A stretch of 64,000 bases of DNA from Spiractinospora alimapuensis (GTDB lineage Bacteria > Actinomycetota > Actinomycetes > Streptosporangiales > Streptosporangiaceae). Within the stretch, counting starts at the first letter, position 1, and the number at the start of each line of letters is the position of its first letter. The position numbers were made by a program, and so were the translations under genes. The notes below the pieces were generated by a model. The model made no database searches. It had not been told where the DNA came from and worked only from the letters and a program-made list of their open reading frames with translations. Where the stretch lies: assembly GCF_018437505.1 (NCBI RefSeq), contig NZ_CP072467.1:434001-498000 (forward strand), read 5' to 3'. Shown one piece after another: positions 28,100 through 50,584 of this stretch.

Positions 28100-28150
28100 A
28101 GTTCGCTCACCCCATTGACGAGTGTCCAGATCAGTACGTACATTCCTGCT

Positions 28151-28180: not shown

Positions 28181-28192
28181 ATTGTGGTGTCT

Positions 28193-31926: not shown

Positions 31927-31956
31927 TATTCGCGCCTTTCCCGCCCGACGTCCGTT

Positions 31957-31979
31957 TCCGATTCGGCCGCCAAATCGGA
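31957..31979 (+). other. Hairpin in the tctB-tctA gap
   Basis: TCCGATT (31957-31963) pairs perfectly with AATCGGA (31973-31979) around a 9-nt loop in the 138-bp gap between tctB and tctA. Other genes of this operon overlap or lie close, so this gap stands out. It may tune the expression ratio of the subunits; no U-run follows. Confidence 0.4.
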
Positions 31980-32064
31980 CCCGCCCGCCGCTGACGACTC
32001 TCCACTAATTCGGCGCCATGTAGGGCTTGATACCGATTTCCCCCCATCACTCTCGGAGTCCATT

Positions 32065-35848: not shown

Positions 35849-36523
35849 TCAGGCCGTGCGGACGCGGCGCAGATAGGCGTCGCGGGAGGGACGCAGGTGG
35901 TCGCGGCAGATGTCGGCGAGGAGATCGGTGTCGCCGGCGCGCAGAGCGTCCACCATGGTCCAGTGCTCCTCCTGGGCCCGGCGCAGGGACTCGGGGTCGG
36001 TGATGGTGATGGACCGGATCACGTGGGTCATGCGTGCGTAGCGGTCGATCGCCTCCACCAGTGCGTCGTTGTCGGCCAGAGAGAACAGGTGCCGGTGGAA
36101 GGCGAGGTTCGCCTGGAGGACACCCCGCGCGTCGCCACCGCCGACCGCGGCGTCGTGGCGGTGCTGGATCTCGACGAGTTCGGCGAGCCGCGCGCGCGGA
36201 ACCGGCAGGGAGACGCGACGCGCGCAACTCACCTCCAGCACCTCCCGGAGGTCGTAGAGGTCGCGCACCTCCTTCTCGCCGTACGCGGCGACGTACGCGC
36301 CGGCGTGGGGTTTACGGCGCACGAGCCCCCGGTTGTGCAGCTCCTGGAGCGCCGCGCGTACCACGTGCCGTTTGACGTCGAACTGTTCCATCAGCTCGTC
36401 CTCCACCAGTCGCTCCCGGGGGAAGCGGCGGCCGAGCACGATGTCCTCCTCGAGGAGGTCGGCGAGTGGCGCTCCGCCGGAAACGGACGCGGTGGTGTGG
36501 GCCGGGGAGGTTGGTTCGGGCAC
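35849..36523 (-). CDS. GntR family regulator, FadR subfamily (FCD domain)
   Basis: The product of about 224 aa has a winged helix-turn-helix (RLVEDELMEQFDVKRHVVRAALQELHNRGLVRRKPHAGAYVA, about residues 35-75) and a helical FCD effector domain with the metal/acid-binding Asp and His residues (YDLREVLEVSCA; ANLAFHRHLFSLADND; EHWTMVDALRAGD; CRDHL). FCD regulators commonly sense organic acids. It is divergent from the IlvD/Edd-type dehydratase gene, and an AT-rich palindrome lies in the gap. The GTG at 36523 is chosen because upstream sequence is low in coding character. Confidence 0.88.
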   Translation of the reverse strand: MPEPTSPAHTTASVSGGAPLADLLEEDIVLGRRFPRERLVEDELMEQFDVKRHVVRAALQELHNRGLVRRKPHAGAYVAAYGEKEVRDLYDLREVLEVSCARRVSLPVPRARLAELVEIQHRHDAAVGGGDARGVLQANLAFHRHLFSLADNDALVEAIDRYARMTHVIRSITITDPESLRRAQEEHWTMVDALRAGDTDLLADICRDHLRPSRDAYLRRVRTA

Positions 36524-36623
36524 AGCGGCTTGTCTCCGATCGCCGTCCGTTGACGTGGTGCGACACCCACGGTACTTGCGGCCCCGTGGGCCGTTGTGAT
36601 TCCCTCGCGATGAAATCGATGAA

Positions 36624-36635
36624 ATTATCAATAAT
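36624..36635. promoter_or_regulatory. AT-rich palindrome before the dehydratase gene
   Basis: ATTAT-CA-ATAAT is a perfect inverted repeat lying 10 bp upstream of the preferred dehydratase start, in a strikingly AT-rich stretch of this GC-rich genome that also has the direct repeat ATGAAAT (36610, 36620). It is a candidate GntR operator. Confidence 0.45.
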
Positions 36636-36645
36636 GAGGTCGATG

Positions 36646-38388
36646 ATGGGTGATCGGGCACGCCCGCTGGGTCTGCGGGGAAACCTCACCAACTACGGAG
36701 ATTCCGAGTTCGCGCTGTTCCTGCGTACGGCCTTCATCAAGGGCGCGGGTTACACCGACGACGCGCTCGACCGCACCGTGGTGGGCATCGTCAACACCGG
36801 CAGCGGGTTCAACCCCTGCCACGGCACCATGCCGCAACTCGTGGACGCGGTGAAACGCGGCGTCATGCTGGCCGGAGGCCTTCCGGTGGAGTTCCCCACC
36901 ATCTCACTGCACGAGAGCTTCGCCCAGCCCACCAGCATGTACCTGCGCAACCTGATGTCGATGGACACCGAGGAGATGATCCGGGCCCTCCCGGTCGACG
37001 CGGTGGTGCTCATCGGAGGTTGTGACAAGACGGTTCCCGCCCAGCTCATGGGTGCCGCGTCCGCGGGTGTTCCCGCGGTCCAGCTCGTCACCGGATCCAT
37101 GCTCACCGGGTCGTACCGAGGGCGTCAGGTGGGTGCCTGCACCGACTGTCGGGCCTACTGGGGCCGGTACCGCGGTGGCGAGATCGACGACGCCGAGATC
37201 GCCGAGGTCAACCAGCAGCTCGTCAGCAGCATGGGAACGTGTTCGGTCGCCGGTACGGCGAGCACCATGGCCTGCGTCGCCGAGGCCCTGGGAGTCGCCC
37301 TCCCCGGCAGCGCGACCCCACCCGCTGTCACCGCCGACCGTACCCGGGTGGCCGAACGCACCGGACGCCGCGCGACGGAACTCGCCCGCGAGGGGTTGGC
37401 CATCGGCGACGTCCTCACCGAAGCGGCGTTCGAGAACGCCCTTACGGTGCTGCTCGCCCTCGGCGGTTCGACCAACGGGATCGTCCACCTGGCCGCGGTC
37501 GCCGGGCGGCTCGGCTACACCCTCGACCTGGACCGGTTCGACGCGATGAGCGAACGAACCCCCGTCCTGGTCGACCTCAAGCCCGCCGGCGACCACTACA
37601 TGGAGGACCTCCACCGCGCGGGCGGCGTCCCCCGACTGCTCCACGAACTCCGGGACCTGCTCGACCTCGACGCCCTCACCGTTACCGGCCGCACGCTCGG
37701 GGAGGAACTCGACGACGCGCCACCCCCCTTTGACCAGGACGTCATCCGCCCTCGCGCCAATCCCGTCTATCCGGCCGGAAGCATCGCCGTGCTGCACGGC
37801 AACCTCGCGCCCAACGGCGCCATCATCAAACGGGCGGCGGCCTCCCAGGAGCTCCTGGAACACCGGGGGCGTGCCGTGGTGTTCCGCGACGCGGCCGACC
37901 TGGCCGCGCGGATCGACGACGACGCGCTGGACGTCTCCTCCGACGACGTTCTGGTCCTGCAACGGATCGGCCCGTTGGGCGGTCCCGGCATGCCCGAGGC
38001 GGGGTATCTCCCGATCCCGTCCCGACTCGCGCGACAGGGAGTCCGCGACATGGTGCGTGTCTCCGACGGACGCATGTCGGGAACCGCGTCGGGAACCATC
38101 GTGCTGCACGTCTCCCCCGAGGCCGCCGCGGGCGGCGCGCTCGCGCAGGTACGCACCGGCGACATGATCCGGCTCAGCGTCGCCGAACGGCGGATCGACG
38201 TGGAGGTCTCCACCGACGAACTCGAACGACGGGCCGCCGAGGCGGACACGGCGGACGCGGAGGCCGTGTCCCGACCGGGGCGGGGCTATGGACGACTCTT
38301 CGCCGAACAGGTCACCCAGGCCGAGGACGGTGTGGACTTCGCGTTCCTCCGCGCCGAGGACTACCGGGGGGTGATCCCCCGAGCCTGA
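36646..38388 (+). CDS. IlvD/Edd-family dehydratase (sugar-acid dehydratase-like)
   Basis: The 580-aa iron-sulfur dehydratase shows GFNPCHGTMPQL, IGGCDKTVPAQLMGAASAG (cluster Cys and Lys-carbamate region) and MGTCSVAGTASTM, the three cluster-Cys segments of the IlvD/Edd family. The CDKTVPA variant and overall layout resemble L-arabonate/D-xylonate dehydratases more than dihydroxy-acid dehydratase. It would convert an aldonic or similar 2,3-dihydroxy acid to a 2-keto-3-deoxy acid. ATG 36646 has GAGG 6 bp upstream; several earlier in-frame ATGs lie in the AT-rich operator zone. It is divergent from a GntR gene. Confidence 0.87.
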   Translation: MGDRARPLGLRGNLTNYGDSEFALFLRTAFIKGAGYTDDALDRTVVGIVNTGSGFNPCHGTMPQLVDAVKRGVMLAGGLPVEFPTISLHESFAQPTSMYLRNLMSMDTEEMIRALPVDAVVLIGGCDKTVPAQLMGAASAGVPAVQLVTGSMLTGSYRGRQVGACTDCRAYWGRYRGGEIDDAEIAEVNQQLVSSMGTCSVAGTASTMACVAEALGVALPGSATPPAVTADRTRVAERTGRRATELAREGLAIGDVLTEAAFENALTVLLALGGSTNGIVHLAAVAGRLGYTLDLDRFDAMSERTPVLVDLKPAGDHYMEDLHRAGGVPRLLHELRDLLDLDALTVTGRTLGEELDDAPPPFDQDVIRPRANPVYPAGSIAVLHGNLAPNGAIIKRAAASQELLEHRGRAVVFRDAADLAARIDDDALDVSSDDVLVLQRIGPLGGPGMPEAGYLPIPSRLARQGVRDMVRVSDGRMSGTASGTIVLHVSPEAAAGGALAQVRTGDMIRLSVAERRIDVEVSTDELERRAAEADTADAEAVSRPGRGYGRLFAEQVTQAEDGVDFAFLRAEDYRGVIPRA

Positions 38389-39562
38389 GAGGCATCCAGA
38401 GCCGTCGTGGAAAGGCCACACCAAGGAGCCGATGAATAAGTGACCGGCCGGGAGTCCCGTGACGGACGACCCTTCCCCCGCCCCACCACCGGTCTATATG
38501 TAGGCGTCCACCGAGGACAGTCGGGGTGCCCCGAGGGCGACACGCCCGGTGTGATGTGGTGCGGCCAACGGGCAGCCCTGCGGTCGGTGCTGATCGTTTC
38601 TGGCCATGGCAGTGGGTCGGTCGTGGATCGACCCGCGCGGGTCGGAGCTCGGGCACGGCTGGGGTCGGCACGCGGGAACGAGCCCACGTCGTCGCGGTCT
38701 GCGCGGCGGTAACCGTTGGTGTGGGTGTCGGTCACCCGGCCATCCCTTGGGTCCGGTCCGGGTGTTTCGGAGGGACGGCCGATGACAGGAACCCGAAGCC
38801 GGGGCGCGGCGCACACATCCAGGTTCGACTGCCGGCAGTGTCGGAGGCACCATGTTGGCACGTGTGGGGGTGTGATGACTACCTATTCATGGGGGTTTGT
38901 GGTCGGTGATGTGCTGGGGCACCATCGCTGGGTGCATGGCCTTCCGCCACATGGGGCGGATCGGGATTTGGTGTTCGTGTCGGAGCGGTTGGTTTCGGCC
39001 GCTGTACGGTGCGCCGATGGGCCTGCGTTCGGTGAGGTGAAAGTGCGGATCGTTGTGGCGGGTTCGGACGCGCGCGGGTCGTGCGGTGGTCCCGGACATC
39101 GGAGCTCGGACATCTCACCGTGATCGGCGTTGGTCTACCGGGCTGTATGGCGCTCGAAGCGGCCCTGTGACATCGCCCTTTTGGAGGTGACAGGGGCAGC
39201 TCGCGCGGTCATCGCGTGGGTGTCGGTCACCCAGCCACCTCCCCGGACCGATCTGGGCGTTCCGCAAGGCTGGTCGGTGTCGGGTATCCGACGCCGGGGG
39301 GGGCACATGCGCATATCCCGCGTTCGCCTGTCGGCCAATGTCGGGAGCGCCGTGTGTGGGTGACAGAGCCAGCCGGCGTGGTCGTCGTGTGCGCGTCGGG
39401 CCCCCGGCCACCTCCAGGATCGGGCCGGGTGGGCCCGCCGGTGGAATCGCCGCACGGGCCATGGGCGGTCCGCGCATCGGGTCGGCACCAGGCCGCACCG
39501 TGGCGATCCCACCGACGCTCGGCACCCGCCTTCCGGTGCGTCCGCTCGCGCCGTGTGCCCGA
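38389..39562. other. 1.17-kb stretch without a convincing gene
   Basis: This gap follows the dehydratase gene and precedes the 3' end of larC. All open frames in it have mixed, Arg/Pro-rich composition and poor third-position GC bias. The best candidate is an 82-residue frame from ATG 38875 to 39123 on the plus strand, whose third-position GC is near 60% rather than the 85-90% of neighbours; I do not accept it as a gene. The stretch contains a diverged repeat pair listed separately. It may be gene debris or acquired DNA. Confidence 0.6.
38717..39363 (+). repeat. Diverged ~150-bp intergenic repeat pair
   Basis: About 150 bp from 38717 and from 39211 are related. They share the identical 16-mer TGGGTGTCGGTCACCC (38722 and 39217), then several short identical blocks (GCCGGGG, TGTCGG) in the same order and spacing, ending in GTGTGGG. 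Each copy opens with a hairpin GGGTG-TCGGT-CACCC (38723-38737 and 39218-39232). Neither copy is coding. A third, weaker similarity begins near 39395. Confidence 0.6.
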
Positions 39563-40744
39563 TCAGTCGGGTTCGGGTGGGGCGGTGCCGGGCCTTCCGG
39601 CCAGGTGTCGGCGGACCCGCGACGCCACGGTCAGCGGAGGGACACCGAGGGCGTCGGCGGCCGCGACCACGTCGTCGTGCTCGGGTTTCGCGTGCCAGGG
39701 GCCGTGCTTGACCCGCACGGGGTGGCCGCCGACGTCGACCGTCGTCACCCGGCGCGGCACGGCTCTGCGGAGCGTGGGCGAGCGCCGGATACCCAGACTG
39801 CCGGTGTGGCGCAGGACCAGCTCCTCCAGCATCGCCGCCTCCGTCTCCCGGCACAGGACGTGCACGACGTGCGCGGGCCGGTTCTTCTTCATGACCGCCG
39901 GGGTGATCCACGCGTCGGCGGCCCCGGCGTCCATCGCGGCCCCGACGAGGTGTCCCAGCACCTCCCCGGTGGCGTCGTCCACGTTGGTCTCCAGCACCAC
40001 GAGTTCCTCAGCCGGGGGAATCCGGTCCGTGGCGGTCTCGAGGAGTGTCGCCTGCAGGACGTTGGGGCGGTCGGGGAGGTCCCGCGTGCCCGCGCCGTAG
40101 CCCGTCTCCCCCACGACCCCGGCCGGGAACGGCCCGTAGGTGGTGTCGATCGCGGTCAGCAGCGCCGCCCCCGTCGGGGTGACCGTCTCGGCCGGGACGT
40201 CGATTCCGACCACGCTCGCTCCGCGGAGCAGCGCCATCGTGGCGGGCGCGGGCGCCGGCAGCCAGCCGTGCTGGGTGGACACCCGGCCCTGCCCGAGACC
40301 CACCGGTGCCGAGACGACGCGCTCGACCCCCAACAGGTGCATCGCCGCGGCGGAACCGACGATGTCCACGATCGTGTCCAGTCCGCCGAGCTCGTGGAGA
40401 TGGACGTGGTCGGGATCGGTCCCGTGGAGGCGGGCTTCCACCTCGGCGACGGCTCGCAGCGCGCGTTGGGCGGTCAGGGCGACGGAATCGACGTCGACCC
40501 GTGCCGCGTGGGCGATGAGCTCCGCGGCCGTGCGTGACGTGGCGGTGTCGTCCTCGACCTCGACGCGGGCGGCGGTGGCCATGATTCCGTGCTTGGCGAC
40601 GCGGTCCTGGGTCAGCCGCCAGCCCCGGACGCCGGTGCTCGCGAGGATCCGCCGTACGTCGTCCAGTGGCGCCCCCAGGTCCAGCAGGGCTCCGAGCAGC
40701 ATGTCGCCGGAGACGCCGGCGCTGGGATTGAGATGGAGGATCAC
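39563..40744 (-). CDS. larC: LarC, nickel-insertion protein for the pincer cofactor
   Basis: The 393-aa protein begins MILHLNPSAGVSGDMLLGALLDLG, the LarC start, and continues through HLHELGGLDTIVDIVGSAAAMHLLGVERV, PTGAALLTAI and LETNVDDATGEVLGHLVGAAMDAGAADAWITPAVMKKNRPAHVVHVLC. It performs CTP-dependent nickel insertion to finish the nickel-pincer nucleotide of LarA. LarC1 and LarC2 parts are in one continuous frame here, with no programmed frameshift. The GTG at 40744 overlaps the larB stop by 4 bp. It is the last gene of the operon. Confidence 0.93.
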   Translation of the reverse strand: MILHLNPSAGVSGDMLLGALLDLGAPLDDVRRILASTGVRGWRLTQDRVAKHGIMATAARVEVEDDTATSRTAAELIAHAARVDVDSVALTAQRALRAVAEVEARLHGTDPDHVHLHELGGLDTIVDIVGSAAAMHLLGVERVVSAPVGLGQGRVSTQHGWLPAPAPATMALLRGASVVGIDVPAETVTPTGAALLTAIDTTYGPFPAGVVGETGYGAGTRDLPDRPNVLQATLLETATDRIPPAEELVVLETNVDDATGEVLGHLVGAAMDAGAADAWITPAVMKKNRPAHVVHVLCRETEAAMLEELVLRHTGSLGIRRSPTLRRAVPRRVTTVDVGGHPVRVKHGPWHAKPEHDDVVAAADALGVPPLTVASRVRRHLAGRPGTAPPEPD

Positions 40745-41457
40745 CGGCGGGCCTCTCCGCTTCCGTGGCGGGCGGTGCTGGACTCCACGGTGGTCGCGAG
40801 TCGGTGGGCCGCCATCGCGGCACCGAAGCCGGAGTCGATGTTGACCACGGTCAGCCCCGCGGCGCAGGTGCTCATCATGGCCAGCAACGCGGTCACCCCC
40901 TCCAGGGCGGCACCGTAGCCGGAGGACACGGGCACGGCGATCACCGGGACGGCGACCAGGCCCGCGATGACGCTGGCCAGCCCGCCCTCCATTCCGGCCA
41001 CCACGACCACGGCGTCGTATGTCGCGATCTCCGCGGCGCAGTCCAGTGTTCGGTGTATACCGGCCACACCGACGTCGTGGAACGTCGCCACCGTCAGGCC
41101 GACCGCGCGGGCGACGCCGGCGGCCTCGGCGGCGACCCGCGTGTCGGCCGTGCCCGCGCTGACCACCGCGAGACGGAACGACCGTGGCGAGGCGTCTCTC
41201 CAGCGCAACAGCCGGGCCTCTGGGTCGTGGGTGGCTCCAGGGAGTGCCCGGGCGACGGTGTCCGCGTCTGGGGTCGGGATCCTGGTGACCAGAACCGGGC
41301 CGCGGGACTGGCGTAGCAGTTCCGCCACGATGGCGATGATCTGGTCGGTTTCCTTGCCGGGCGCGTAGACACACTCGGCGACACCCTGGCGCTCCTCGCG
41401 GGCGGTGTCGACCCGGGCGAACCCGAGGTTGGTGTACCCCTCGCCGCCGCTCGTCAC
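40741..41457 (-). CDS. larB: LarB, nicotinate dinucleotide carboxylase/hydrolase for the pincer cofactor
   Basis: The 238-aa protein has an N-terminal GFARVDTAREERQGVAECVYAPGKE segment and a C-terminal PurE-like (AIR-carboxylase) domain with VVVAGMEGGLASVIAGLVAVPVIAVPVSSGYG and STCAAGLTVVNIDSGFGAA. The Cys in STCAAG fits the conserved LarB cysteine that attacks nicotinic acid adenine dinucleotide. It carboxylates the pyridine ring and releases AMP, the first step of cofactor synthesis. The GTG start overlaps the larE stop by 4 bp. Confidence 0.93.
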   Translation of the reverse strand: MTSGGEGYTNLGFARVDTAREERQGVAECVYAPGKETDQIIAIVAELLRQSRGPVLVTRIPTPDADTVARALPGATHDPEARLLRWRDASPRSFRLAVVSAGTADTRVAAEAAGVARAVGLTVATFHDVGVAGIHRTLDCAAEIATYDAVVVVAGMEGGLASVIAGLVAVPVIAVPVSSGYGAALEGVTALLAMMSTCAAGLTVVNIDSGFGAAMAAHRLATTVESSTARHGSGEARR

Positions 41458-42284
41458 TGGGTTCCTCCGGTGGTGACCTCGACGAGTGGCAGGACGGCGT
41501 TCATCCGGCCGCTGGACAGTCCGCCCAGGTCGAGGGAACAGAAGGTGAACCCGCTGGCCCGGACCCGCGCGTCGAGTTCCCCGCGCAGGGTGGCGGCGCG
41601 TTCGACCTGGTGCGCGGGCACCTCGATCCGGGCGACGGTGCCCTGGGAGTGGGCTCGGACGCGTAGGTCGGAGAAGCCCAGGGCACGAACGGCCTCCTCC
41701 GCGGCCTCGATCCGGGCGAGAACGTCGGGGGTGACGGTCTCTCCGTAGGCGACACGGGAGGCGAGGCAGGGCGCGGCCGGTTTCGTCGCGGTGCGCAGCC
41801 CCAGCTCGTGGCTGACGTTCCGCACCGTGGCCTTGTCGAAGCCGGCGTCCACGAGGGGACTCAGCACACCACGCTCTCCGGCGGCGCGTTGCCCCGGACG
41901 GTGGTCCCCCAGATCGTCGAGATTGGTCCCCAACGCCACCGACGCGCCCGAGAGGCGGGCGATGGGTGCCAGGGCGTCGAACAGGGCACTCTTGCAGTGG
42001 TAGCAGCGGTCACCGGCGTTGGCCCGGTACTCGGGGCGGTTGGCCTCGTCCGTGCGGACCTCCACGTGCGCGATGGCGTGCTCGGTGGTGAAAGTACGCG
42101 CGTCACCTCGCTCCCGCGCAGCCAGGCTCGGCGACACGGCGGTCACGGCGAGTGCCCCGTCACCGAGCTCCCGTGCCGCCACGAAGGCGAGCAGGGCTGA
42201 GTCCACTCCGCCCGAGTAGGCGACGATGAGGCGCCTCTCCGCGGCGAGCCGGGCGCGGAGACGTTCCAGTGGTGTCGTCGGCAT
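41454..42284 (-). CDS. larE: LarE, ATP-dependent sulfur transferase for the pincer cofactor
   Basis: The 276-aa protein has the PP-loop ATPase motif YSGGVDSALLAF (SGGVDS at 24-29), GTNLDDLGDHRPGQRAA, and KPAAPCLASRVAYGE. Three cysteines are well placed: Cys94 and Cys97 in DRCYHCK and Cys173 in PCLASR. That set corresponds to the cluster-binding type of LarE (three Cys holding a [4Fe-4S] cluster) rather than the single-Cys sacrificial type of Lactobacillus. It converts the two pyridine carboxylates to thiocarboxylates. ATG 42284 starts 23 bp after the ldh2 stop. Confidence 0.93.
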   Translation of the reverse strand: MPTTPLERLRARLAAERRLIVAYSGGVDSALLAFVAARELGDGALAVTAVSPSLAARERGDARTFTTEHAIAHVEVRTDEANRPEYRANAGDRCYHCKSALFDALAPIARLSGASVALGTNLDDLGDHRPGQRAAGERGVLSPLVDAGFDKATVRNVSHELGLRTATKPAAPCLASRVAYGETVTPDVLARIEAAEEAVRALGFSDLRVRAHSQGTVARIEVPAHQVERAATLRGELDARVRASGFTFCSLDLGGLSSGRMNAVLPLVEVTTGGTQ

Positions 42285-42307: not shown

Positions 42308-43378
42308 TCAGACCAGGTATGCGAGGTCCGGGATGCTGACATCCAGCGCGTCCGCCGTCGCCGCGATCTCGGCGCGAACCTCCGGAGCCAGGTCGAGACC
42401 CGCCTCGAGGTTCTCCGCCGCGCGAACGGCCTCGGGTTCTCCCGGGAGGTAGACGCGGGAGTGGTCCGTGGCCGGCCGGAGAGCCGTCACCTCCTCGGCG
42501 ACGCCCGCCATGCGGTCGGCGAACTCCCCCGGTGCGGTGAACAGGTCGGGGTTCATCGCGAGGAAGAAGTGGCCCACGTCCTGCTCGGTGTGGGGGTTGT
42601 CGTACAGCGGCGGGATGTGAGGGCCGTAGTTGGCCCCCGACAGCACACCCGAGAGGATGTCGACCAGCAGGGCCAGGCCCGAGCCTTTGGCGCCGCCGAG
42701 CGGGAGCATGGTCCCCTGGACACCCGCTGCGGGGTCCTGGGTAGGGGATCCGGAAGCGTCCAGGGCCCACCCGATGGGGATCGGTTCCCCCTTCTTGTCC
42801 GCGAGGATGATCTTGCCGCGGGCCACCGTGCTGGTCGCCATGTCGAACACGATGTTGGGCCGCTCACCGGCGACGGGAACGGCGTAGGACAGCGGGTTGG
42901 TGCCGAAGAACGGGGCGGCGGCGCCCCACGGCGCCATCGTGGGGGGCGCGCTGGTCGTGGCGAGAGCGATGAGGCCCCGGTCCGCCGCGGCACTGGTGTA
43001 GTAGGCGAGCATGCCGCAGTGGTTGGATCGGTGAACCGCGACGGCTCCCATCCCACTGGCCTTCGCCTTGTCGATGGCGGTTTCCATGGCGGCGCGGGCG
43101 ACGACGATCCCGGGGCCGTTGCCCCCGTCGAGCCGAGCGCTCACGGGCGTCTCCGCCTCGGTGCGCATGGTGGGGCGGGGGTCGACGAGGCCGGAGCGGA
43201 CGCGTTCGACGTAGACGGCCGTGCGGCTGACCCCGTGGGAGGACACCCCGCGGAGCTCGGCCTGGACGAGGTGGTCCGCCGTCGTCGCGGCTCCCTCTTC
43301 GGACAGCCCGGCGGCGGTGAAGATCCGTGTCACCACGTTGCGCAGGGGGTTGACGGCGACACGGGAGTTGTCAGACAT
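42308..43378 (-). CDS. Malate/L-lactate dehydrogenase family (Ldh2-type) NAD(P)-dependent 2-hydroxyacid dehydrogenase
   Basis: The 356-aa enzyme belongs to the Ldh2 family that oxidises L-malate, L-sulfolactate, ureidoglycolate or similar 2-hydroxyacids. Signatures are ELRGVSSHGVSRTAVYVERV (catalytic His, about 40-60), VHRSNHCGMLAYYTSAAADRGLIALATTSAPPTMAPWGAAAPFFGTNPLSYAVP, and PLGGAKGSGLALLVDILSGVLSGA. ATG 43378 overlaps the RraA gene end by 8 bp (ATGTCTGA). In this operon it should oxidise the stereoisomer produced by the LarA homologue. Confidence 0.93.
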   Translation of the reverse strand: MSDNSRVAVNPLRNVVTRIFTAAGLSEEGAATTADHLVQAELRGVSSHGVSRTAVYVERVRSGLVDPRPTMRTEAETPVSARLDGGNGPGIVVARAAMETAIDKAKASGMGAVAVHRSNHCGMLAYYTSAAADRGLIALATTSAPPTMAPWGAAAPFFGTNPLSYAVPVAGERPNIVFDMATSTVARGKIILADKKGEPIPIGWALDASGSPTQDPAAGVQGTMLPLGGAKGSGLALLVDILSGVLSGANYGPHIPPLYDNPHTEQDVGHFFLAMNPDLFTAPGEFADRMAGVAEEVTALRPATDHSRVYLPGEPEAVRAAENLEAGLDLAPEVRAEIAATADALDVSIPDLAYLV

Positions 43379-44048
43379 GCTCACATCCGTTCTCGGTGAG
43401 TTTCTCGGTGATCCAGGCGCGGTCCCACCGGTCGCCGGTGATCGCCTCGGGCACGGTGTCCTCGTGTCGGCGCAGCGCGTCCGCGTCCCGCTCGACGCTT
43501 TCGGCGTCGCCCTGGGGGACCACGACGACTCCGTCCGCGTCGCCGAGGATCAGGTCGCCGGGGAGGACGGCCTCCCCACCGCAACCGATCGGTGTGTTGA
43601 TCTCTCCGGGGCCGTCCTTGTAGGGGCCGTTGGGGTTGAGCCCACGGGCGAACACGGGCAGGCCGAGGGCGTTCAGGTCCTCGACGTCGCGCACGGCGCC
43701 GTCGACGACGATTCCGGCGATGCCCCGATGGGACGCGTAGCGTGCCATCAGTCCACCGATGATGGCGTGGGCGCTCCCGCCGCAGGCGTCGACGACGAGC
43801 ACGTCCCCCGGCTCCGCGAGGTCCAGCGCGCGGTGCACCATCAGATTGTCCGAAGGGCGGGTGCGGACGGTGATCGCGATGCCGGCCAGGTAGCGGCCGC
43901 TGATGCGGTGGAGCCCGCGGAGCGTTCCGAACCGTGCCATCACGTCGACGACGTTGGGGGTGGGGGTCTGCGCGTCCCGGAAGCGACGGATCACGTCCGG
44001 GGGGACCGTGGACTTCGGCCGGGCGAGGACACGGTTGCCGACGCCCAT
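43371..44048 (-). CDS. RraA-like / HMG-aldolase-family protein (2-oxo acid aldolase or oxaloacetate decarboxylase)
   Basis: The 225-aa protein shows the class II pyruvate-aldolase core of the RraA/HMG family: LVVDACGGSAHAIIGGLMARYASHRGIAGIVVDGAVRDVEDLNALGLPVFARG (about residues 93-145), carrying the Gly-rich phosphate/carboxylate loop and the Arg-Asp pair (RD) that binds substrate and metal. Catalytic family members cleave 4-hydroxy-4-methyl-2-oxoglutarate or 4-carboxy-4-hydroxy-2-oxoadipate and decarboxylate oxaloacetate; RraA proper inhibits RNase E. The operon setting favours the enzyme role. ATG 44048 overlaps the larA stop by one base (TGATG). Confidence 0.87.
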   Translation of the reverse strand: MGVGNRVLARPKSTVPPDVIRRFRDAQTPTPNVVDVMARFGTLRGLHRISGRYLAGIAITVRTRPSDNLMVHRALDLAEPGDVLVVDACGGSAHAIIGGLMARYASHRGIAGIVVDGAVRDVEDLNALGLPVFARGLNPNGPYKDGPGEINTPIGCGGEAVLPGDLILGDADGVVVVPQGDAESVERDADALRRHEDTVPEAITGDRWDRAWITEKLTENGCEHV

Positions 44049-45334
44049 CACGCCGCCACCGCTCCGGCCGCGTCGAAGCGGAGGCCGGGCGTGGACTCCA
44101 GGATCGTGATCTCCTCCCGGTCCCGGATCTCGGGCAGTAGGGCCGTGGAGATCCATAGCGTTTCCAGGTGCAGCGTGTTGTCGATCATCGCCATTCGGAT
44201 CGTGTTCTCCTCACCGGGTTGGGGTTTGAGCATCCGGGCCATGGCGGCCACGAGGGCGGAGTCGGAGGGGAACGTCATGGGCACCGCCGCGCGTTGTGGT
44301 CCGCCGCTGGTCAGACAGTTCAGGTAGGTGCTCTCGCGGTCGAGTTTGGCGACGAGCCGTTCTGTGGTGAAGTCGGCGAGGCCGACCCCGGTGGCGTTGC
44401 CGTGCGAGCCGGCGTCCAGGTCGAGGACCCCGAGGGCGCGGATGGCGGGGACCGCCGGTTCGTCCATGCCCTCCAACCGGAGACGTCCGATGACGTTGGT
44501 GTCCATCCCGGATCCGCTGTATGCCTTGCCCATCGATCGGACGATGAGGGCGTCGAGACGGTCCACGGGCAGCCGCGGGAGGAGCCGCCGGGCGCGGTCC
44601 AGCAGGCGCTCCTCGTGGTGGCGCAGCTCGGCGGCCGGGATCGCCTCGATCACCGCCGGGTGCTCGTGGGCGTCCTGCACGATGGCGATGCCGCCGACCA
44701 CCGGGAGGCGGTCCAGGACCGTTGTGGCGATGGAGTCGATCGCCTCGACCATGTGGTGCCACCCCAGCCGGTGCACCATGGACGCGCCGTGCGCCCTTCC
44801 CGCCCCGACGGTCAGCATCTTCAACAGCCCGCTCTCGTGCGGGCCGTGGAACGAGGTGTGGGGTTTGATCCGGTTGACCGGGATGATCATGTCCGCCTCG
44901 GCGGCTTCTCGGGCGAACCGGACCGGCAGGCCGGCACGGGGGCCGGTGGTCTCCCCGAGGTGCGCGACCTCGTCGGAGCAGCTAATGGGTGCTCCCGTGG
45001 CTTCCTCCGTGATGCCCAGGGAGGTGAGGATGTCGCGCTGTCCCTGTGCGGTGCCACCGCCGTGGCTGCCCATGGCGGAGAACAGGAAGGGCGATCCGCC
45101 GGCGTCACGGACCGCGCGCACCACTCCGCGGAGGAGCTGTGGGATGCCGTGTATGCCGCGGCTTCCCGCCGTGATCGCGACCCGCGCGCCGGCCAGCGCA
45201 CCGTGTTCGTCGAGGAGACAGCGGGTCTGGCGAAACGTGGTCTCCTCGGGGTCCTCGAGTGCGAACGACGGCAGGGTGCGGCGAATCCTGTGCATCGGGA
45301 CGTGGTGCAGAACGGAGCTGGTCCTGGTTGTCAT
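44048..45334 (-). CDS. larA: LarA-family nickel-pincer racemase/epimerase (DUF2088)
   Basis: The 428-aa protein has the LarA/DUF2088 signatures AITAGSRGIHGIPQLLRGVV (about 54-72), SAMGSHGGGTAQGQRDIL (86-103) and MIIPVNRIKPHTSFHGPHESGLLKMLTVGAGRAHGA (149-184), rich in the His and Lys residues that hold and work with the nickel-pincer cofactor. The family interconverts stereoisomers of 2-hydroxyacids by hydride transfer to the cofactor; members act on lactate, malate, 2-hydroxyglutarate or sugar acids. This variant differs from true lactate racemase. It overlaps tctA by 4 bp and is encoded with larB, larE and larC. Confidence 0.9.
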   Translation of the reverse strand: MTTRTSSVLHHVPMHRIRRTLPSFALEDPEETTFRQTRCLLDEHGALAGARVAITAGSRGIHGIPQLLRGVVRAVRDAGGSPFLFSAMGSHGGGTAQGQRDILTSLGITEEATGAPISCSDEVAHLGETTGPRAGLPVRFAREAAEADMIIPVNRIKPHTSFHGPHESGLLKMLTVGAGRAHGASMVHRLGWHHMVEAIDSIATTVLDRLPVVGGIAIVQDAHEHPAVIEAIPAAELRHHEERLLDRARRLLPRLPVDRLDALIVRSMGKAYSGSGMDTNVIGRLRLEGMDEPAVPAIRALGVLDLDAGSHGNATGVGLADFTTERLVAKLDRESTYLNCLTSGGPQRAAVPMTFPSDSALVAAMARMLKPQPGEENTIRMAMIDNTLHLETLWISTALLPEIRDREEITILESTPGLRFDAAGAVAA

Positions 45335-46872
45335 GGGGTCACCTCTGGGCGTGGTCCCGATTCGGAGTCCTCCGTGGGGAGCCGACGGCGCATCCACCGC
45401 GCGAGTAGCGGCGCCGTCAGCGACAGGAGGATGAGGAGCATCAAGACGATGGTCAGTGGGCGGGAGAAGTAGTAGCCGAGCAGGTCGCCCTGGGCCATCA
45501 CCGCCGACTGCCGGAGCCCCTTCTCGGCGATGCTGCCCAGGATGAGCCCGAGCACGATGGGCGCCGGAGGCATACCGACCTTGCGCAGGACGTATCCGAT
45601 CACGCCGAACACCAGCATCACCCATACGTCGGCGATGCTGTTGTTCACCGCGTAGGTTCCGACGACGCACAGCGCGACGATGACGGGCACGAGGACACGG
45701 ATCGGTGCCCGGGTGGCGAGCACGAAGTAGCGTGCGCCGGCCAGGGCGAACGCGCCGATCAGGATGTTGGCCAGCAGGAAGCCGAACATGATGGCGTAGG
45801 TGATGTCACCCTGTTCGGTGAACAGGGCCCCGCCGGGCTGCAGGCCGTGGATGAGGAGGCCGCCGAAGATGACGGCGGTCGCGGAGCTGCCGGGAATCCC
45901 CAGTGTCAGCATGGGGACCATCGACCCACCGGTGACGCCGCTGTTGCAGGTCTCGGCGCCCGCCACACCCTTGAGTGACCCCTTGCCGAACTCCTCTCGG
46001 TCCTTGCCGCGGGAGAAGCGTTTGGCCTCGTTGTAGCCGATCCAGCTCCCGATGTCGCCGCCGGCGCCCGGAAGCAGTCCGACGAACACGCCGATCCCGG
46101 AGGAGCGGCCGATCGTGCCACCCAGGCGGCGCAGTTCCCGCAGCGTCGGCATCGCTCGTCCCGTGACACTGCTCCGGGTCGGCGCGGTCGACGTCGATCT
46201 TCCCTCGGCGAGGATGAGGACCTGGGACAGCGAGAAGAGGCCGATCAACGCGGGTACGAGCGCGATGCCTGACTGCAGTGCGGTCGTGCCGAAGGTGAAG
46301 CGTGGATACCCGGTCAGGATATCGATCCCGACCGTGGCGACCAGCAGGCCGATCGCGCCGGCCGCGAATCCCTTGAGCAACGACCCGGCGGAGAGGCTCC
46401 CGATGATCAGCAGTCCGAAGATCGCGATCAGGAAGTACTCCGAGGCGGCGAAGGCGAGGGAGACCTGGGCGAGTGGCGGTGCGATCAGCAGTAGGGCGAA
46501 GGCGCTCACCAGGCCGCCGCTCATCGACGCGATCGCGGAGACGGCCAGCGCCTTGGCCCCCTTACCCCGCAAGGTGAGTTGGTAGCCGTCCAGAGCGGTG
46601 GCCGCGGCGGCGGGGGTGCCGGGGGTGTTGATCAGGATCGCCGAGATGGATCCGCCGTAGGTCGCGGCGGCGTAGATCGCGACGAGCATGGAGATGCCGG
46701 CGACCGGGTCCATCCCGAAGGTCACCGGGACCAGCAGTGCGATGCCCATCGTCCCACTGAGGCCGGGCAGCGCGCCGATGATGATGCCGCCGACGACACC
46801 GGCGGTGATCGCGAGCAGGACCTCCCACGTGAACAGGTTGTCCAGGGCGCCGTAGAGAATCTCGGTGTTCAC
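45331..46872 (-). CDS. tctA: Tripartite tricarboxylate transporter large permease TctA, system 2
   Basis: The 513-aa membrane protein has the paired TctA signatures GIIIGALPGLSGTMGIALLVPVTFGMDP (about residues 30-57) and GVFVGLLPGAGGDIGSWIGYNEAKRFSRG, with the NTPGTPAAAATALDGYQLTLRGKG and TLGIPGSSATAVIFGGLLIHG segments and about 12 helices. GTG 46872 is chosen because AGGGGGTGA, a near-perfect ribosome site, lies 5 bp upstream; GTG 46878 falls within that site. Its stop overlaps the larA start (ATGA), which ties transport to the racemase. Confidence 0.93.
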   Translation of the reverse strand: MNTEILYGALDNLFTWEVLLAITAGVVGGIIIGALPGLSGTMGIALLVPVTFGMDPVAGISMLVAIYAAATYGGSISAILINTPGTPAAAATALDGYQLTLRGKGAKALAVSAIASMSGGLVSAFALLLIAPPLAQVSLAFAASEYFLIAIFGLLIIGSLSAGSLLKGFAAGAIGLLVATVGIDILTGYPRFTFGTTALQSGIALVPALIGLFSLSQVLILAEGRSTSTAPTRSSVTGRAMPTLRELRRLGGTIGRSSGIGVFVGLLPGAGGDIGSWIGYNEAKRFSRGKDREEFGKGSLKGVAGAETCNSGVTGGSMVPMLTLGIPGSSATAVIFGGLLIHGLQPGGALFTEQGDITYAIMFGFLLANILIGAFALAGARYFVLATRAPIRVLVPVIVALCVVGTYAVNNSIADVWVMLVFGVIGYVLRKVGMPPAPIVLGLILGSIAEKGLRQSAVMAQGDLLGYYFSRPLTIVLMLLILLSLTAPLLARWMRRRLPTEDSESGPRPEVTP

Positions 46873-46881
46873 GGTCACCCC

Positions 46882-47379
46882 CTAACCGAACAACAGCCCG
46901 GTGGGCAACGGGACGCTGAGCTGGGCCACGAACAGCAGGTAGACCAGCCCGGACAGTACGACGGTGACGCCGGTGAAGACGCGCCAGTCGCGCACGCCGC
47001 CGAACCACAGGTGTGCGACGAGGTAGAGCGCGGTCGCGGGGAAGAAGCCGACGAGACTCAGCAGCCCGACGTAGGCCGTCACGATCACGATGGTCCACGC
47101 GGGACGGGACAGGGTCGCACGGCTCCACTCCGTAGAGGACTCCGGTGCCTCCGAGGAGTCCGCTCTGGCGCGCGCCGCGCGTAGCCCGCGCACGGCGATG
47201 GCGACGCCGAGCCCCAGCAACAGCGCGAGGACGGCCCACGGCCAGGCGGCGGCCTCCGCGGACAGGGGGATCGTGTACAGGAGGAACACGGTGGCGAGGG
47301 CGACGAGTGAGAGGCCGAGAACGGCGTCGGGAGATCGGAGGGACGATAAGCGCCTTTTCGGTCCTGACTGGAGGGACAT
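46882..47379 (-). CDS. tctB: Tripartite tricarboxylate transporter small membrane subunit TctB, system 2
   Basis: The 165-aa protein has four hydrophobic segments: SPDAVLGLSLVALATVFLLYTIPL, AAAWPWAVLALLLGLGVAIAV, AWTIVIVTAYVGLLSLVGFFPATALYLVAHLWF, and VFTGVTVVLSGLVYLLFVAQLSVPLP. The last ends in the short P-x-G-L-L-F tail typical of TctB. ATG 47379 is preceded by a GGGGGTAGG element. It follows tctC by 73 bp and precedes tctA by 9 bp. Confidence 0.88.
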   Translation of the reverse strand: MSLQSGPKRRLSSLRSPDAVLGLSLVALATVFLLYTIPLSAEAAAWPWAVLALLLGLGVAIAVRGLRAARARADSSEAPESSTEWSRATLSRPAWTIVIVTAYVGLLSLVGFFPATALYLVAHLWFGGVRDWRVFTGVTVVLSGLVYLLFVAQLSVPLPTGLLFG

Positions 47380-47452: not shown

Positions 47453-48499
47453 TCATGGGGCGCCGCCCCAGATGTAGGTCTCGCCGAGGCGGCGGGCCGT
47501 GCGGTCGTCTCTGGTGACCATGTCGGCGTACTCGTCCGGCGGGAGGTAGTCGACTTCCAGACCCTGCGTGGCGAGCTGCTCGATGTGATCCGGATGTTCC
47601 ACGGCCGCCCGGCACGCGTCCACCAACGTGGCCGTGACCTCCGGGTCCAGGCCGGCGGGGGCGGCGATGCCACGGGAAGACCAGGAGGCCACGTCGGTGA
47701 AGCCGGCCTCGGTGAGCGTGGGAACGTCTTCCAGGTACGGTGACCGTTCCGCGTCGTCCTTCATGACCGCGATCACCCGGATCTCCCCGGCGTCGTGTTG
47801 GGCCTTGACCTCGCCGACGTTGGCGAAGACGGCGTCGACGTTGCCGCCGAGGAGGTCGGAGATGCTGTCGGCGGCCCCCTCGTTGTGGAGAACCGTGAAT
47901 CGTGTGTCGAATCTGTCGCTGAGTTGGAGCGAGGCGAAGTGGTCGTCGCTGCCCACGCCGGTGGACGTCACGATCAGTTCGTGTTCCATGGCGTGTTCCA
48001 TGAAGCCGGTGATGTCGTCGAACCGGTCGTCGGAGGGACTGACCGCGATCGCGCCGTAGTCGGTGACCTGGTTCCCGATCAGGGTGAACGACTCCGGCCC
48101 GACGTCGGTGCGTCCCAGGCGCGGGTCCAGGTAGCCGGTCATGAAGTTGGGCGTGTTGATGAACCCGATCGTGTAGCCGTCGGGATCCGCGTTTACGAGA
48201 TCGTTCCACCCCACCCACCCGCCTCCCCCGGGGAGGTTGATGATCTGGACTTCTCCGTCAAGCGCCTCCTCCAGGAAGGGCTGGAGGACGCGTGCGCCGA
48301 CATCGGTTCCGCCCCCCGGCTCGTAGGCGACGATCATCTGGATGGGGCGGGTGGGGAACGCTCCGGTTCCCCCGCCCAGGCCACAGGCCGAGAGGGTCGG
48401 AGCGCCGGCCGCCGCCAGGCCGAGCGCGGAGAGCCGAAGAAACGCGCGACGCCCGATTGGTCGGTTACCGCCATGGGGAATTTCCGTTGTTTTTGGCAT
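47453..48499 (-). CDS. tctC: Tripartite tricarboxylate transporter substrate-binding lipoprotein TctC, system 2
   Basis: The 348-aa precursor carries a twin-arginine-like basic patch (IGRRAFLRLSALG) followed by a lipobox ending LSAC at about residue 39, so it is a lipoprotein, perhaps Tat-exported. The Bug domain shows PIQMIVAYEPGGGTDVGARVLQPFLEE, INLPGGGGWVGWNDLVNADPDGYTIGFINTPNFM and VLHNEGAADSISDLLGGNVDAVFANVGEV. It would bring the operon's substrate to TctAB. It is the first gene of the nine-gene operon running to larC. Confidence 0.92.
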   Translation of the reverse strand: MPKTTEIPHGGNRPIGRRAFLRLSALGLAAAGAPTLSACGLGGGTGAFPTRPIQMIVAYEPGGGTDVGARVLQPFLEEALDGEVQIINLPGGGGWVGWNDLVNADPDGYTIGFINTPNFMTGYLDPRLGRTDVGPESFTLIGNQVTDYGAIAVSPSDDRFDDITGFMEHAMEHELIVTSTGVGSDDHFASLQLSDRFDTRFTVLHNEGAADSISDLLGGNVDAVFANVGEVKAQHDAGEIRVIAVMKDDAERSPYLEDVPTLTEAGFTDVASWSSRGIAAPAGLDPEVTATLVDACRAAVEHPDHIEQLATQGLEVDYLPPDEYADMVTRDDRTARRLGETYIWGGAP

Positions 48500-48587: not shown

Positions 48588-49292
48588 TTACCTTCCTGGG
48601 GCGTCGGCTTCCTGTCGCTGCGCGAGGAACTTGCGCATGGTTTCCTCACCTGCTCTGAGGTGCGCGAGCAACGCTTCGCGGGCGACCGGAAGGTCGTGCG
48701 CCTCGATCGCGACGCAAATATCCTGGTGTTCGTTGACTACTTCTCGCATTCGACCTTCGTATCCCGGGGCGAGGAAGTGTCGAATTCGGTTGATATGTTT
48801 CTCGGTCTGTTCGTAGAAGCGGATGAGTCGCGAGTTGTCGCTCAGTGCGACAATGCGTTTGTGGAATGCGTGGTCCCGCGCGAGGTACTCCTCGTACGGT
48901 CCGGGTGGGCCGGGGGTGGGGGCACGGTCGAAGAAGGTGGACAGCTCCTCGACGACCTCTTCCTCCCACGTCTCGGCCAGACGATCCAGGCCGAGGGGCT
49001 CCACCAGGCGACGCACCTCGAACAGTTCGGCGACGTCCCCGAGGGCGAAGCCGGCCACCGCATAGCGTCCCCGCCGGCGGTCCACCAGACCCGCCGCCTC
49101 CAGGCTCTGCATCGCGTCACGGATGGGGGTCCTGCTGACGCCCAACGCCTCGGAGAGGTGTCGGTCAACGAGTGGGGTCCCTGGGGGAAGGTCCCCATGG
49201 ATGATCGCGCTCTCGATGGCCTCGTACGCGGACTCACTCATCCGGAGGTTCCGCAGGGGTCCGTGGGCCCGCATGGGGGCTAGCGCATCCAT
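48588..49292 (-). CDS. GntR family regulator, FadR subfamily, of the Lar-Tct operon
   Basis: The product of about 234 aa has a winged helix-turn-helix (AIIHGDLPPGTPLVDRHLSEALGVSRTPIRDAMQSLEAAGLVDRRRGRYAVAGF, about residues 29-82) and an FCD domain with the His/Asp acid-sensing set (FEVRRLVEPLGLDRLA; RDHAFHKRIVALSDNSRL; EHQDICVAIEAHDLP; HLRAG). The gene lies upstream of tctC on the same strand and divergent from the FAH gene, and a perfect 20-bp palindrome follows its start at 49331-49350. The exact start is uncertain: ATG 49292, 49274 and a later ATG all lack strong ribosome sites. Confidence 0.88.
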   Translation of the reverse strand: MDALAPMRAHGPLRNLRMSESAYEAIESAIIHGDLPPGTPLVDRHLSEALGVSRTPIRDAMQSLEAAGLVDRRRGRYAVAGFALGDVAELFEVRRLVEPLGLDRLAETWEEEVVEELSTFFDRAPTPGPPGPYEEYLARDHAFHKRIVALSDNSRLIRFYEQTEKHINRIRHFLAPGYEGRMREVVNEHQDICVAIEAHDLPVAREALLAHLRAGEETMRKFLAQRQEADAPGR

Positions 49293-49729
49293 GTGACGCA
49301 CGGTACATTGCCTCCGAAAAGTCAACAAGGGTATTTGGTATACCAAATACCGGAAGATGTCCCTCGAGAAGACGAACCCGCCGCACCGGCAGGGTGACCC
49401 CGCCTCCACCGCCCACGGCCCCGTGGGTCGGTCAGCCCAGACGCCAGCCCACTCCCCCAGTCGTCCAGCGATGGCTTCACAGTCGTCCGCTGGCCCGGGT
49501 TTCCTCCAGGGAGGACGATGCGCATGGACGATCCGCCCTCCCCTCGCGCGACGGATCCGGGTGCTGGTCGGACGACTCCGCCCCCGACGAGCACGCTCAC
49601 ACCCCGTTCGACCTCAGGGCCGTGGCCGTGGACGACCGGGGCACGGTGGGAGCCGGGTGAGCCCGAGCCATGTTCCGTGAGAATCGCTCTTCGCGAGAAG
49701 AGAGAACGTACGAGAAAGGTACGCACCGC
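49293..49729. other. Divergent promoter region between gntR and the FAH gene
   Basis: This 437-bp gap holds the 20-bp palindrome at 49331-49350 and the promoters for both directions. Open frames within it (for example 49357-49680) are Pro/Arg-rich with no recognisable domain and weak codon bias, and I do not call them genes. The last 60 bp before the FAH start are A/G-rich, including CGAGAAAGG. Confidence 0.55.
49331..49350. promoter_or_regulatory. Perfect 20-bp palindrome, probable GntR operator
   Basis: GTATTTGGTATACCAAATAC reads the same on both strands. Its core TGGTATACCA closely matches the TGGT...ACCA half-site pattern recognised by FadR-subfamily GntR proteins. It lies 39 bp upstream of the gntR start and about 380 bp before the FAH gene. 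It is the obvious candidate for autoregulation and effector-controlled expression of the operon. Confidence 0.8.
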
Positions 49730-50584
49730 ATGCGCCTTGCCACTATCCGCACCGAGTCCGGCGAGCGTCGGCCCGTCGTGGTCGACCCGAAACGCGGAAC
49801 CGTCGCAGTGTCCGATCTCATCGACGCCGCCCCGAGCGACACCATGGCGTTGCTCGCCCCCGAGGCGTGGCGGGAACTGGAGGACCGGCTCGCCCGAGCG
49901 CCGGAGTCGGTGCCGGACCTCGGCCCCGACGCGCACTTCGTCGCGCCCTACACCCGTCCCCGCAAGCTGTGGGGCATCGGACTCAACTACGTGGACCACG
50001 CGGCCGACCTGTCCGAGGTGGTTCCCGACGAGCCCGCGTCGTTCGTCAAGGGGGACCACACCATCATCGGGCCCGGAGAGCCCATCCCACTACCCGCCCA
50101 GAGCCAGCGGGTCACCGCTGAGGGCGAACTGGGGTTGGTGATCGGTCGCTACTGCCGTGACGTCTCCGAGGACGACGCGTTGGACTACGTCGCCGGCGTC
50201 ACCACGGTGTTGGACCAGACCGCCGAGGACATCCTGGAGCGTAACCCGCGTTTCCTCACGCGTTCCAAGAACTTCCCCGGGTTCTTCTCCTTCGGTCCGC
50301 ACATCGTGCCGCTGTCGGAGGTGATCGCCGCGAACGGGTCGCTGTCCGAGGTCGAGGTGCAGACCGTCATCGACGGCGAGGTCCACCGCGCCAACACGGT
50401 GTCGCGGATGCGCTACTCGCCCGAGCACCTGATCAGCTTCCACAGTGCGGTGATGCCGCTCTACCCCGGGGACATCATCTCCACCGGAACCCCGGGTGCG
50501 GCACCGTTGGCGCCGGGCATGGTCGCGGAGTGCCGCGTCAGCGGAGTGGGCACGCTCCGCAATCCGGTGGTCGCCGCTCCCTGA
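49730..50584 (+). CDS. Fumarylacetoacetate hydrolase (FAH) family protein
   Basis: The 284-aa protein begins MRLATIRTESGERRPVVVD and has the FAH catalytic domain: KLWGIGLNYVDHAADL (about 82-97), the metal ligands in VTAEGELGLVIGRYCRDVSEDDALDYVAG (Glu-x-Glu) and LDQTAEDI, and MPLYPGDIISTGTPGAAP. Bacterial members hydrolyse acylpyruvates, hydrate dienoates, or decarboxylate/tautomerise oxaloacetate. Divergent placement from the Lar-Tct regulator suggests it joins that pathway. ATG 49730 has GAGAAAGG about 10 bp upstream. Confidence 0.9.
   Translation: MRLATIRTESGERRPVVVDPKRGTVAVSDLIDAAPSDTMALLAPEAWRELEDRLARAPESVPDLGPDAHFVAPYTRPRKLWGIGLNYVDHAADLSEVVPDEPASFVKGDHTIIGPGEPIPLPAQSQRVTAEGELGLVIGRYCRDVSEDDALDYVAGVTTVLDQTAEDILERNPRFLTRSKNFPGFFSFGPHIVPLSEVIAANGSLSEVEVQTVIDGEVHRANTVSRMRYSPEHLISFHSAVMPLYPGDIISTGTPGAAPLAPGMVAECRVSGVGTLRNPVVAAP

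What the first reader, a model, noticed from the sequence alone, without database searches (positions are those of the whole stretch)
44048..45334. LarA homologue is a divergent subgroup, probably not a lactate racemase
The protein keeps DUF2088 signatures (GSHGGGTAQGQ at 89-99; RIKPHTSFHGPHESGLLK at 155-172), but its neighbours are carboxylate importers and malate-type enzymes rather than lactate genes. LarA homologues with malate, 2-hydroxyglutarate or sugar-acid activity are known, and this one may define substrate range from context.
Basis: partly seen in the sequence, partly recalled or inferred. Interest (0 to 1): 0.6.

Follow-up and report, generated by a model that had tools for sequence, protein, structure and literature searches.

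The report
Unassigned nickel-dependent hydroxy-acid isomerase
This gene encodes a distant cousin of bacterial lactate racemase that keeps all the parts needed to hold the unusual nickel cofactor but belongs to a large branch of unknown activity, and its neighbours suggest that it flips a stereocentre in a sugar-derived acid rather than in lactate or malate.

Summary
The ORF is real (window 45334-44048, minus strand, 428 aa). It is a clear member of a known but unassigned subfamily, "NPN isomerase group 22" (463.6 bits, cut-off 400). It does not match the lactate racemase model, and a tree with solved LarA, malate racemase and gluconate-epimerase sequences puts it in a separate, fully supported branch. 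An AlphaFold model (pLDDT 95) matches only LarA-family structures well (Z 18.6-21; next best 7). The cofactor and catalytic set R59, H91, H159, K172 and H188 is invariant in 139 group-22 proteins. It is the only LarA homologue found in the genome and sits in one apparent operon with larE, larB and larC, so it is very probably a nickel-pincer enzyme. The malate reading is weaker. In the ten-member clade around it, nine members lie near an acid-sugar-type dehydratase (IlvD/EDD, enolase-superfamily or UxaA), and most also near SDR and FAH genes of the "Route III" type. Elsewhere in group 22 the gene sits beside four-carbon acid-sugar kinase and PdxA. Best explanation: a C2-epimerase of an imported acid sugar. 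The exact substrate is unknown; malate-type or lactate/glycerate racemase readings are not excluded. Group 22's published gene-context table could not be read here.

The parts
44048..45334 (-). LarA homologue, NPN isomerase group 22 (428 aa). Candidate cofactor residues R59 (codon 45160-45158), K172 (44821-44819), H188 (44773-44771); candidate catalytic residues H91 (45064-45062), H159 (44860-44858)
   Evidence: translation; NF052515 463.6 bits; invariant residues; model; LarA fold
45331..46878 (-). TctA, large membrane subunit of a tripartite tricarboxylate transporter; its end overlaps the larA start by 4 bases
   Evidence: homologous to annotated TctA of Sporomusa
46882..47379 (-). TctB, small membrane subunit
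   Evidence: start inferred
47453..48499 (-). TctC, solute-binding protein
   Evidence: start inferred
48588..49292 (-). GntR/FCD regulator (start uncertain)
   Evidence: Pfam FCD and GntR
43371..44048 (-). RraA-like protein (PRK06201 subfamily; HMG/CHA aldolase and oxaloacetate decarboxylase relatives); start overlaps the larA stop (TGATG)
42308..43384 (-). Ldh_2 family NAD(P)-dependent 2-hydroxyacid dehydrogenase (malate/lactate/ureidoglycolate/sulfolactate type; no equivalog cut-off met)
41454..42284 (-). LarE, sulfur transferase of NPN biosynthesis
   Evidence: TIGR00268 257.8 bits; start
40741..41457 (-). LarB, NPN biosynthesis
   Evidence: NF033503 242.9 bits
39563..40744 (-). LarC, nickel insertion
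   Evidence: Pfam Ni_insertion 388 bits; TIGR00299 and NF052512; start
36466..38388 (+). IlvD/EDD family acid-sugar-type dehydratase (PRK06131; match covers residues 74-632, so the true start is probably further in); convergent with the lar operon; likely but unproven pathway partner
   Evidence: NF004784 833.6 bits against cut-off 539, below the cut-offs of biosynthetic IlvD models
49670..50584 (+). FAH-family hydrolase, divergent from the operon; likely pathway partner
   Evidence: Pfam FAA_hydrolase 172 bits; present near larA in all six members of the closest clade

Best explanation
The protein is a nickel-pincer-nucleotide (NPN) enzyme that inverts the C2 stereocentre of a 2-hydroxy acid by transient hydride transfer to the cofactor: K172 tethers the cofactor, H188 ligates nickel, R59 binds phosphate or carboxylate, and H91 and H159 are the acid/base pair. 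The substrate is most likely an acid sugar (an aldonate, or an aldarate), imported by TctABC and epimerised so that a stereospecific dehydratase can accept it. The 2-keto-3-deoxy product is then broken down by dehydrogenase and FAH hydrolase or aldolase steps. Shown by computation: fold, residue set, group membership, gene order and conserved neighbourhood. Inferred: cofactor binding, activity, substrate class, order of steps.
For: Group 22 membership. LarA fold: 12 LarA-family entries at Z 18.6-21.1, the next unrelated fold at 7.0. R59, H91, H159, K172 and H188 invariant in 139 of 139; the K-to-H spacing of 16 equals LarA 184/200, Mar2 181/197 and GntE2 164/180. Only LarA homologue found in the genome, in one apparent operon with larE/B/C. 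In the 10-member clade around it (SH-aLRT 99) nine loci carry an IlvD, enolase-superfamily or UxaA dehydratase, and most also SDR and FAH; in L052 an MFS transporter, IlvD and larA22 lie in tandem with larA starting 5 bases after IlvD, near a GMC oxidoreductase and gluconate-2-dehydrogenase subunit 3. A distant Bacilli clade (L106, L109, L113) has the same set plus RraA and Ldh2. Other group-22 genes sit beside four-carbon acid-sugar kinase and PdxA (kinase 15 hits within 5 kb, 0 at 7-10 kb; PdxA 13 and 0). UxaA-type, SDR and FAH enzymes form acid-sugar Route III (PMC6336799). The two residues after the second catalytic His, F-F in LarA and Y-K in Mar2 (PMC7583248), are T160-S161 here.
Against: The window lacks the enolase-superfamily and SDR genes of its relatives; the closest copies elsewhere in the genome are only 37% and 43% identical. 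The IlvD gene is on the other strand, 1.2 kb from larC, with a GntR gene next to it. Ldh2 and RraA have no obvious place in a simple dehydratase route. FAH, SDR and enolase-superfamily genes are not much denser next to larA22 than further out over all loci (ratios 1.1-1.4). Some group-22 genes sit beside LutABC or GlcD/F, which fits lactate-like acids. The LarA residues D72, K298, W358 and T359 could not be aligned with confidence. No assay exists.
Confidence: 0.55

Rival explanations
1. Malate, tartrate or similar short dicarboxylate racemase: TctABC imports a dicarboxylate, LarA22 makes the isomer that Ldh2 oxidises, and RraA decarboxylates the oxo-acid.
For: TctABC, Ldh_2 (best solved relative: type 2 malate/lactate dehydrogenase) and RraA (relatives include oxaloacetate decarboxylases) flank larA with overlapping genes. 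A basic residue at position 163 is common in group 22 (R/H/K in 81 of 112). The relatives' enolase-superfamily enzyme is most like L-talarate/galactarate dehydratase.
Against: The malate-racemase model NF052593 scores 18.7 against a cut-off of 500; the Mar2 loop pair Y-K is T-S here; dehydratase and FAH genes of the neighbourhood are not needed for malate; a basic residue 163 also occurs in the four-carbon acid-sugar context, where the expected substrates are monocarboxylates.
Confidence: 0.2
2. Racemase of a small 2-hydroxy acid (lactate or glycerate) at the end of the pathway: the FAH step releases pyruvate plus lactate, glycerate or glycolate, and LarA22 makes the isomer that Ldh2 can oxidise.
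For: Route III releases lactate or glycolate (PMC6336799); some group-22 genes sit beside LutABC, GlcD/F or DUF4147 glycerate kinase; Ldh_2 lies close downstream.
Against: No Lut genes near the window copy; no NF033504 match; the bulky hydrophobic F-F pair of lactate racemases is absent.
Confidence: 0.15
3. An NPN enzyme that does another hydride-transfer reaction, or a protein without isomerase activity.
For: LarA residue D72 falls at A56 by position, and the K298 equivalent is uncertain; PMC7583248 notes that some unassigned groups lack catalytic residues.
Against: Both catalytic histidines and the cofactor Lys/His/Arg are invariant in 139 proteins, and the operon carries larB, larC and larE.
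Confidence: 0.07

Closest known systems
NPN isomerase group 22 (NCBIfam NF052515; numbering apparently that of Desguin et al. 2020, PMC7583248)
   Same: Full-length match, 463.6 bits; same invariant residues as 138 other group-22 proteins
   Different: The group has no reported activity in the papers read; nothing separates this protein from the group except its own clade and operon
D-gluconate 2-epimerase GntE2 (Thermotoga maritima, 4NAR)
   Same: LarA fold (Z 18.6); small or polar residues after the second catalytic His; acid-sugar gene context
   Different: About 12% identity; separate branch; E-S loop instead of T-S; no NF052594 match
Malate racemase Mar2 (6D6Z/7S91)
   Same: Top structural match (Z 21.1); K/H spacing of 16 and R, H, H set
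   Different: 15% identity; lacks the Y-K loop pair; NF052593 18.7 against a cut-off of 500
Lactate racemases LarA (L. plantarum, 5HUQ) and LarAIp (9EIA)
   Same: Fold (Z 19.0-21.0), cofactor and catalytic residues by position
   Different: 14-17% identity; F-F (LarA) or L-M (LarAIp) loop replaced by T-S plus a 3-residue longer loop before the tethering lysine; no NF033504 match
LarASp/LarABw (9Q3K/9Q3J), single-histidine LarA relatives (PMC12393405)
   Same: Divergent LarA branch with carbohydrate-like context; Z 20.0-20.7
   Different: Those have Asn in place of the second catalytic His; this protein keeps both histidines

Membership tests
LarA superfamily (NPN-dependent 2-hydroxyacid isomerases) | Two-domain LarA fold | tested here: met
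   AF2 model pLDDT 95.3; LarA-family chains Z 18.6-21.1 over 297-326 residues, next fold 7.0; Foldseek E down to 1e-9
LarA superfamily (NPN-dependent 2-hydroxyacid isomerases) | NPN-binding Arg, Lys and His (R75, K184, H200) | tested here: met
   R59, K172, H188 invariant in 139/139; K-to-H spacing 16 as in LarA, Mar2 and GntE2. The profile alignment alone does not place K172 on K184 because of a longer loop
LarA superfamily (NPN-dependent 2-hydroxyacid isomerases) | Two catalytic histidines (H108, H174) | tested here: met
   H91 and H159 align and are invariant
LarA superfamily (NPN-dependent 2-hydroxyacid isomerases) | D72 and K298 equivalents | tested here: inconclusive
   D72 falls at A56 by position; K270 (invariant) or R284 may stand in for K298; C-terminal alignment not reliable
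LarA superfamily (NPN-dependent 2-hydroxyacid isomerases) | Cofactor biosynthesis genes larB, larC, larE available | tested here: met
   all three in the same apparent operon
LarA superfamily (NPN-dependent 2-hydroxyacid isomerases) | Bound NPN and C2 isomerase activity | not testable with these tools
   needs purified protein
NPN isomerase group 22 (NF052515) | Score above the curated cut-off of 400 bits | tested here: met
   463.6 bits over residues 13-404
Lactate racemase (LarA group 1, NF033504) | Match to the equivalog model (cut-off 460) | tested here: not met
   no match at E <= 0.001; outside the LarA branch
Malate racemase (LarAH6, NF052593) | Match to the equivalog model (cut-off 500) | tested here: not met
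   18.7 bits
Malate racemase (LarAH6, NF052593) | Lys at the T359 position for the second carboxylate | tested here: inconclusive
   region not aligned with confidence; R348 is nearby but unplaced
Hexonate/gluconate 2-epimerase (NF052594, GntE) | Sequence match or common branch | tested here: not met
   no match; group 22 and GntE in separate branches. This lowers membership only, not the idea that it works like GntE
DUF362 (PF04015) | Score above the gathering cut-off | tested here: met
   33 bits against 24 over residues 65-224; DUF362 was used as outgroup of the LarA tree in PMC11770544, so this reflects kinship of the N-terminal domain

The most novel reading that the evidence does not exclude
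Group 22 is a family of acid-sugar C2-epimerases whose subclades follow the catabolic genes beside them: C4 acids (threonate/erythronate) where a four-carbon acid-sugar kinase and PdxA are present, and C5-C6 aldonates or aldarates where IlvD, UxaA or enolase-superfamily dehydratases are present. The window protein would be the entry step of an unreported pathway in which nickel-pincer chemistry lets a cell use both C2 epimers of an imported acid sugar.
Probability: 0.45. Interest if true: 0.65.

Novelty: new member of a known kind. Interest (0 to 1): 0.45.

Why it matters
Group 22 is common (46 of 396 sampled genomes of the same phylum; also Bacilli, Clostridia, Planctomycetes, Poribacteria and haloarchaea), yet no activity for it was found in the papers read. 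If its members are acid-sugar C2-epimerases, a large share of unassigned nickel-pincer enzymes gains a testable function, and pathways thought to need two dehydratases for two epimers may run on one. The genes beside it (kinase plus PdxA, or dehydratase) give concrete substrates to assay.

Tried and rejected
A scan of genome contigs with the single protein found no relative; repeating it with an alignment gave 80 loci. PDB searches by sequence with the protein or a group-22 profile found no LarA structure, so the fold link rests on the model and a profile-profile alignment (probability 96.7, C-terminal half unreliable). Mapping of W358/T359 for a second-carboxylate contact was abandoned: no coordinates were available, and the two LarA papers place the GntE2 equivalent at different residues. 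The idea that the window genome holds the relatives' enolase-superfamily and SDR genes elsewhere was tested and not supported. A second LarA paralogue in the genome was looked for and not found. The published gene-context table and residue logos for group 22 (supplement of PMC7583248) could not be opened, so overlap with an earlier suggestion there is unknown. No structural or literature evidence was found that ties RraA (PRK06201 type) to one substrate.

Full report
Observation. The ORF is on the minus strand of window 45334-44048 and encodes 428 aa; both motifs are at the stated residues. It overlaps the TctA end by four bases and its stop overlaps the start of an RraA-like gene (TGATG); RraA overlaps Ldh_2, LarE overlaps LarB and LarB overlaps LarC. 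So TctC-TctB-TctA-LarA-RraA-Ldh2-LarE-LarB-LarC looks like one transcription unit behind a GntR/FCD regulator. Transcription was not shown.

What it is. NCBIfam places it in "nickel pincer cofactor-dependent isomerase, group 22" with 463.6 bits (cut-off 400); the malate-racemase model reaches 18.7 and the lactate-racemase model does not appear. The group number appears to be that of Desguin et al. 2020 (PMC7583248, 25 groups); in the parts read, that paper and the two later ones (PMC11770544, PMC12393405) report no activity for group 22. A tree of 18 group-22 proteins with LarA, LarAIp, Mar2, GntE2 and other homologues separates group 22 from all of them with full support (quick method, divergent sequences).

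Structure and residues. The AlphaFold model is confident (pLDDT 95.3, pTM 0.92). All LarA-family structures found score Z 18.6-21.1 and the next fold 7.0. R59, H91, H159, K172 and H188 are invariant in 139 of 139 group-22 proteins. By position and spacing they match LarA R75, H108, H174, K184 and H200; the Lys-to-His spacing is 16 in LarA, Mar2, GntE2 and here. The loop between the second catalytic His and the Lys is three residues longer than in LarA, so the profile alignment misplaces the Lys. The pair after that His is T160-S161, against F-F in LarA and Y-K in Mar2 (PMC7583248). D72, K298, W358 and T359 could not be mapped reliably, so no second-carboxylate contact is claimed or excluded.

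It is the genome's only LarA homologue found with group-22 and Lar_N models, and the operon holds larB, larC and larE, so it is very likely the client of that cofactor pathway.

Neighbourhood. The five closest relatives (65-72% identity) all have GntR, TctCBA, LarA22, Ldh2 and LarE/B/C, with FAH, SDR and an enolase-superfamily gene divergent; one also has RraA and two have IlvD. The enolase-superfamily protein is closest by sequence to L-talarate/galactarate dehydratase among solved structures; the function is not shown. The wider 10-member clade (SH-aLRT 99) adds L051 and L052, where L052 has MFS, IlvD and larA22 in tandem near gluconate-2-dehydrogenase-like genes, and two Bacillales loci with UxaA, SDR and FAH. 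Nine of ten have an acid-sugar-type dehydratase (counting the window's IlvD, which lies on the other strand). A distant Bacilli clade (L106, L109, L113) has RraA, Ldh2, FAH, IlvD, UxaA, TctABC, a 2-hydroxyacid dehydrogenase and SDR around its own LarA22. UxaA-type dehydratase, SDR and FAH hydrolase form the Route III acid-sugar pathway described for Herbaspirillum (PMC6336799).

Across 131 single-copy loci, hits within 5 kb and at 7-10 kb are 15 and 0 for four-carbon acid-sugar kinase, 13 and 0 for PdxA, 10 and 0 for Ldh2, 11 and 0 for LutA, 8 and 1 for IlvD, and 12 and 3 for UxaA; FAH, SDR and enolase-superfamily genes show little contrast. The inner zone searched is about 1.8 times the outer. 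Loci were chosen by similarity and are not independent. Roseobacter plasmids place the gene with an L-arabinonate-type dehydratase, UxaA and LarC, and a Paenibacillus plasmid with glucuronate isomerase and larE/B/C. Residue 161 is Asp in 17 of 17 proteins with the kinase-PdxA context and Ser or Ala in most Tct-plus-dehydratase loci, which fits different substrates in different subclades but also follows the tree.

Mechanism proposed. Import by TctABC; C2 hydride transfer to NPN and back on the other face, with H91 and H159 as acid/base; dehydration of the accepted epimer; then cleavage to central metabolites. Ldh2 and RraA may oxidise and cleave a later intermediate; their place is not resolved. 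The group-level family, fold and residue set are shown; cofactor binding, activity and substrate are inferred.

Verdict. The subgroup is already catalogued. The malate reading is possible but weaker than an acid-sugar epimerase.

Noticed in passing
L036, L044, L045, L046, L048, L070, L075, L078, L126, L129, L131, L138, L140, L156, L167, L084, L086: Group-22 larA beside a four-carbon acid-sugar kinase and PdxA, suggesting a threonate/erythronate C2-epimerase; residue 161 is Asp in all 17 such proteins.
   Followed up: partly
L044, L047, L067, L069, L070, L073, L076, L107, L141 (LutABC); L093, L095, L097, L100, L110 (GlcD, most with a LutA/GlcF-like gene): Other group-22 genes sit beside lactate/glycolate-oxidation genes, so the group may also hold lactate-like substrates.
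   Followed up: partly
L082, L086, L088: Haloarchaeal group-22 genes beside a DUF4147 glycerate kinase.
   Followed up: no
L081: Paenibacillus cellulositrophicus plasmid: uxaC, larA22, SDR, larE, larB, larC in a row, which resembles a mannonate/gluconate route.
   Followed up: no
window 27734-33621: A second tripartite tricarboxylate transporter (TctC 30332-31369, TctA 32065-33621) beside a CaiB-type CoA-transferase and a crotonase-like gene (transporter; the other two read by eye from the ORFs).
   Followed up: no
window 38388-39563: About 1.2 kb between IlvD and larC without an obvious gene; holds diverged direct repeats of 84 and 66 nt and a 23-nt inverted repeat.
   Followed up: no
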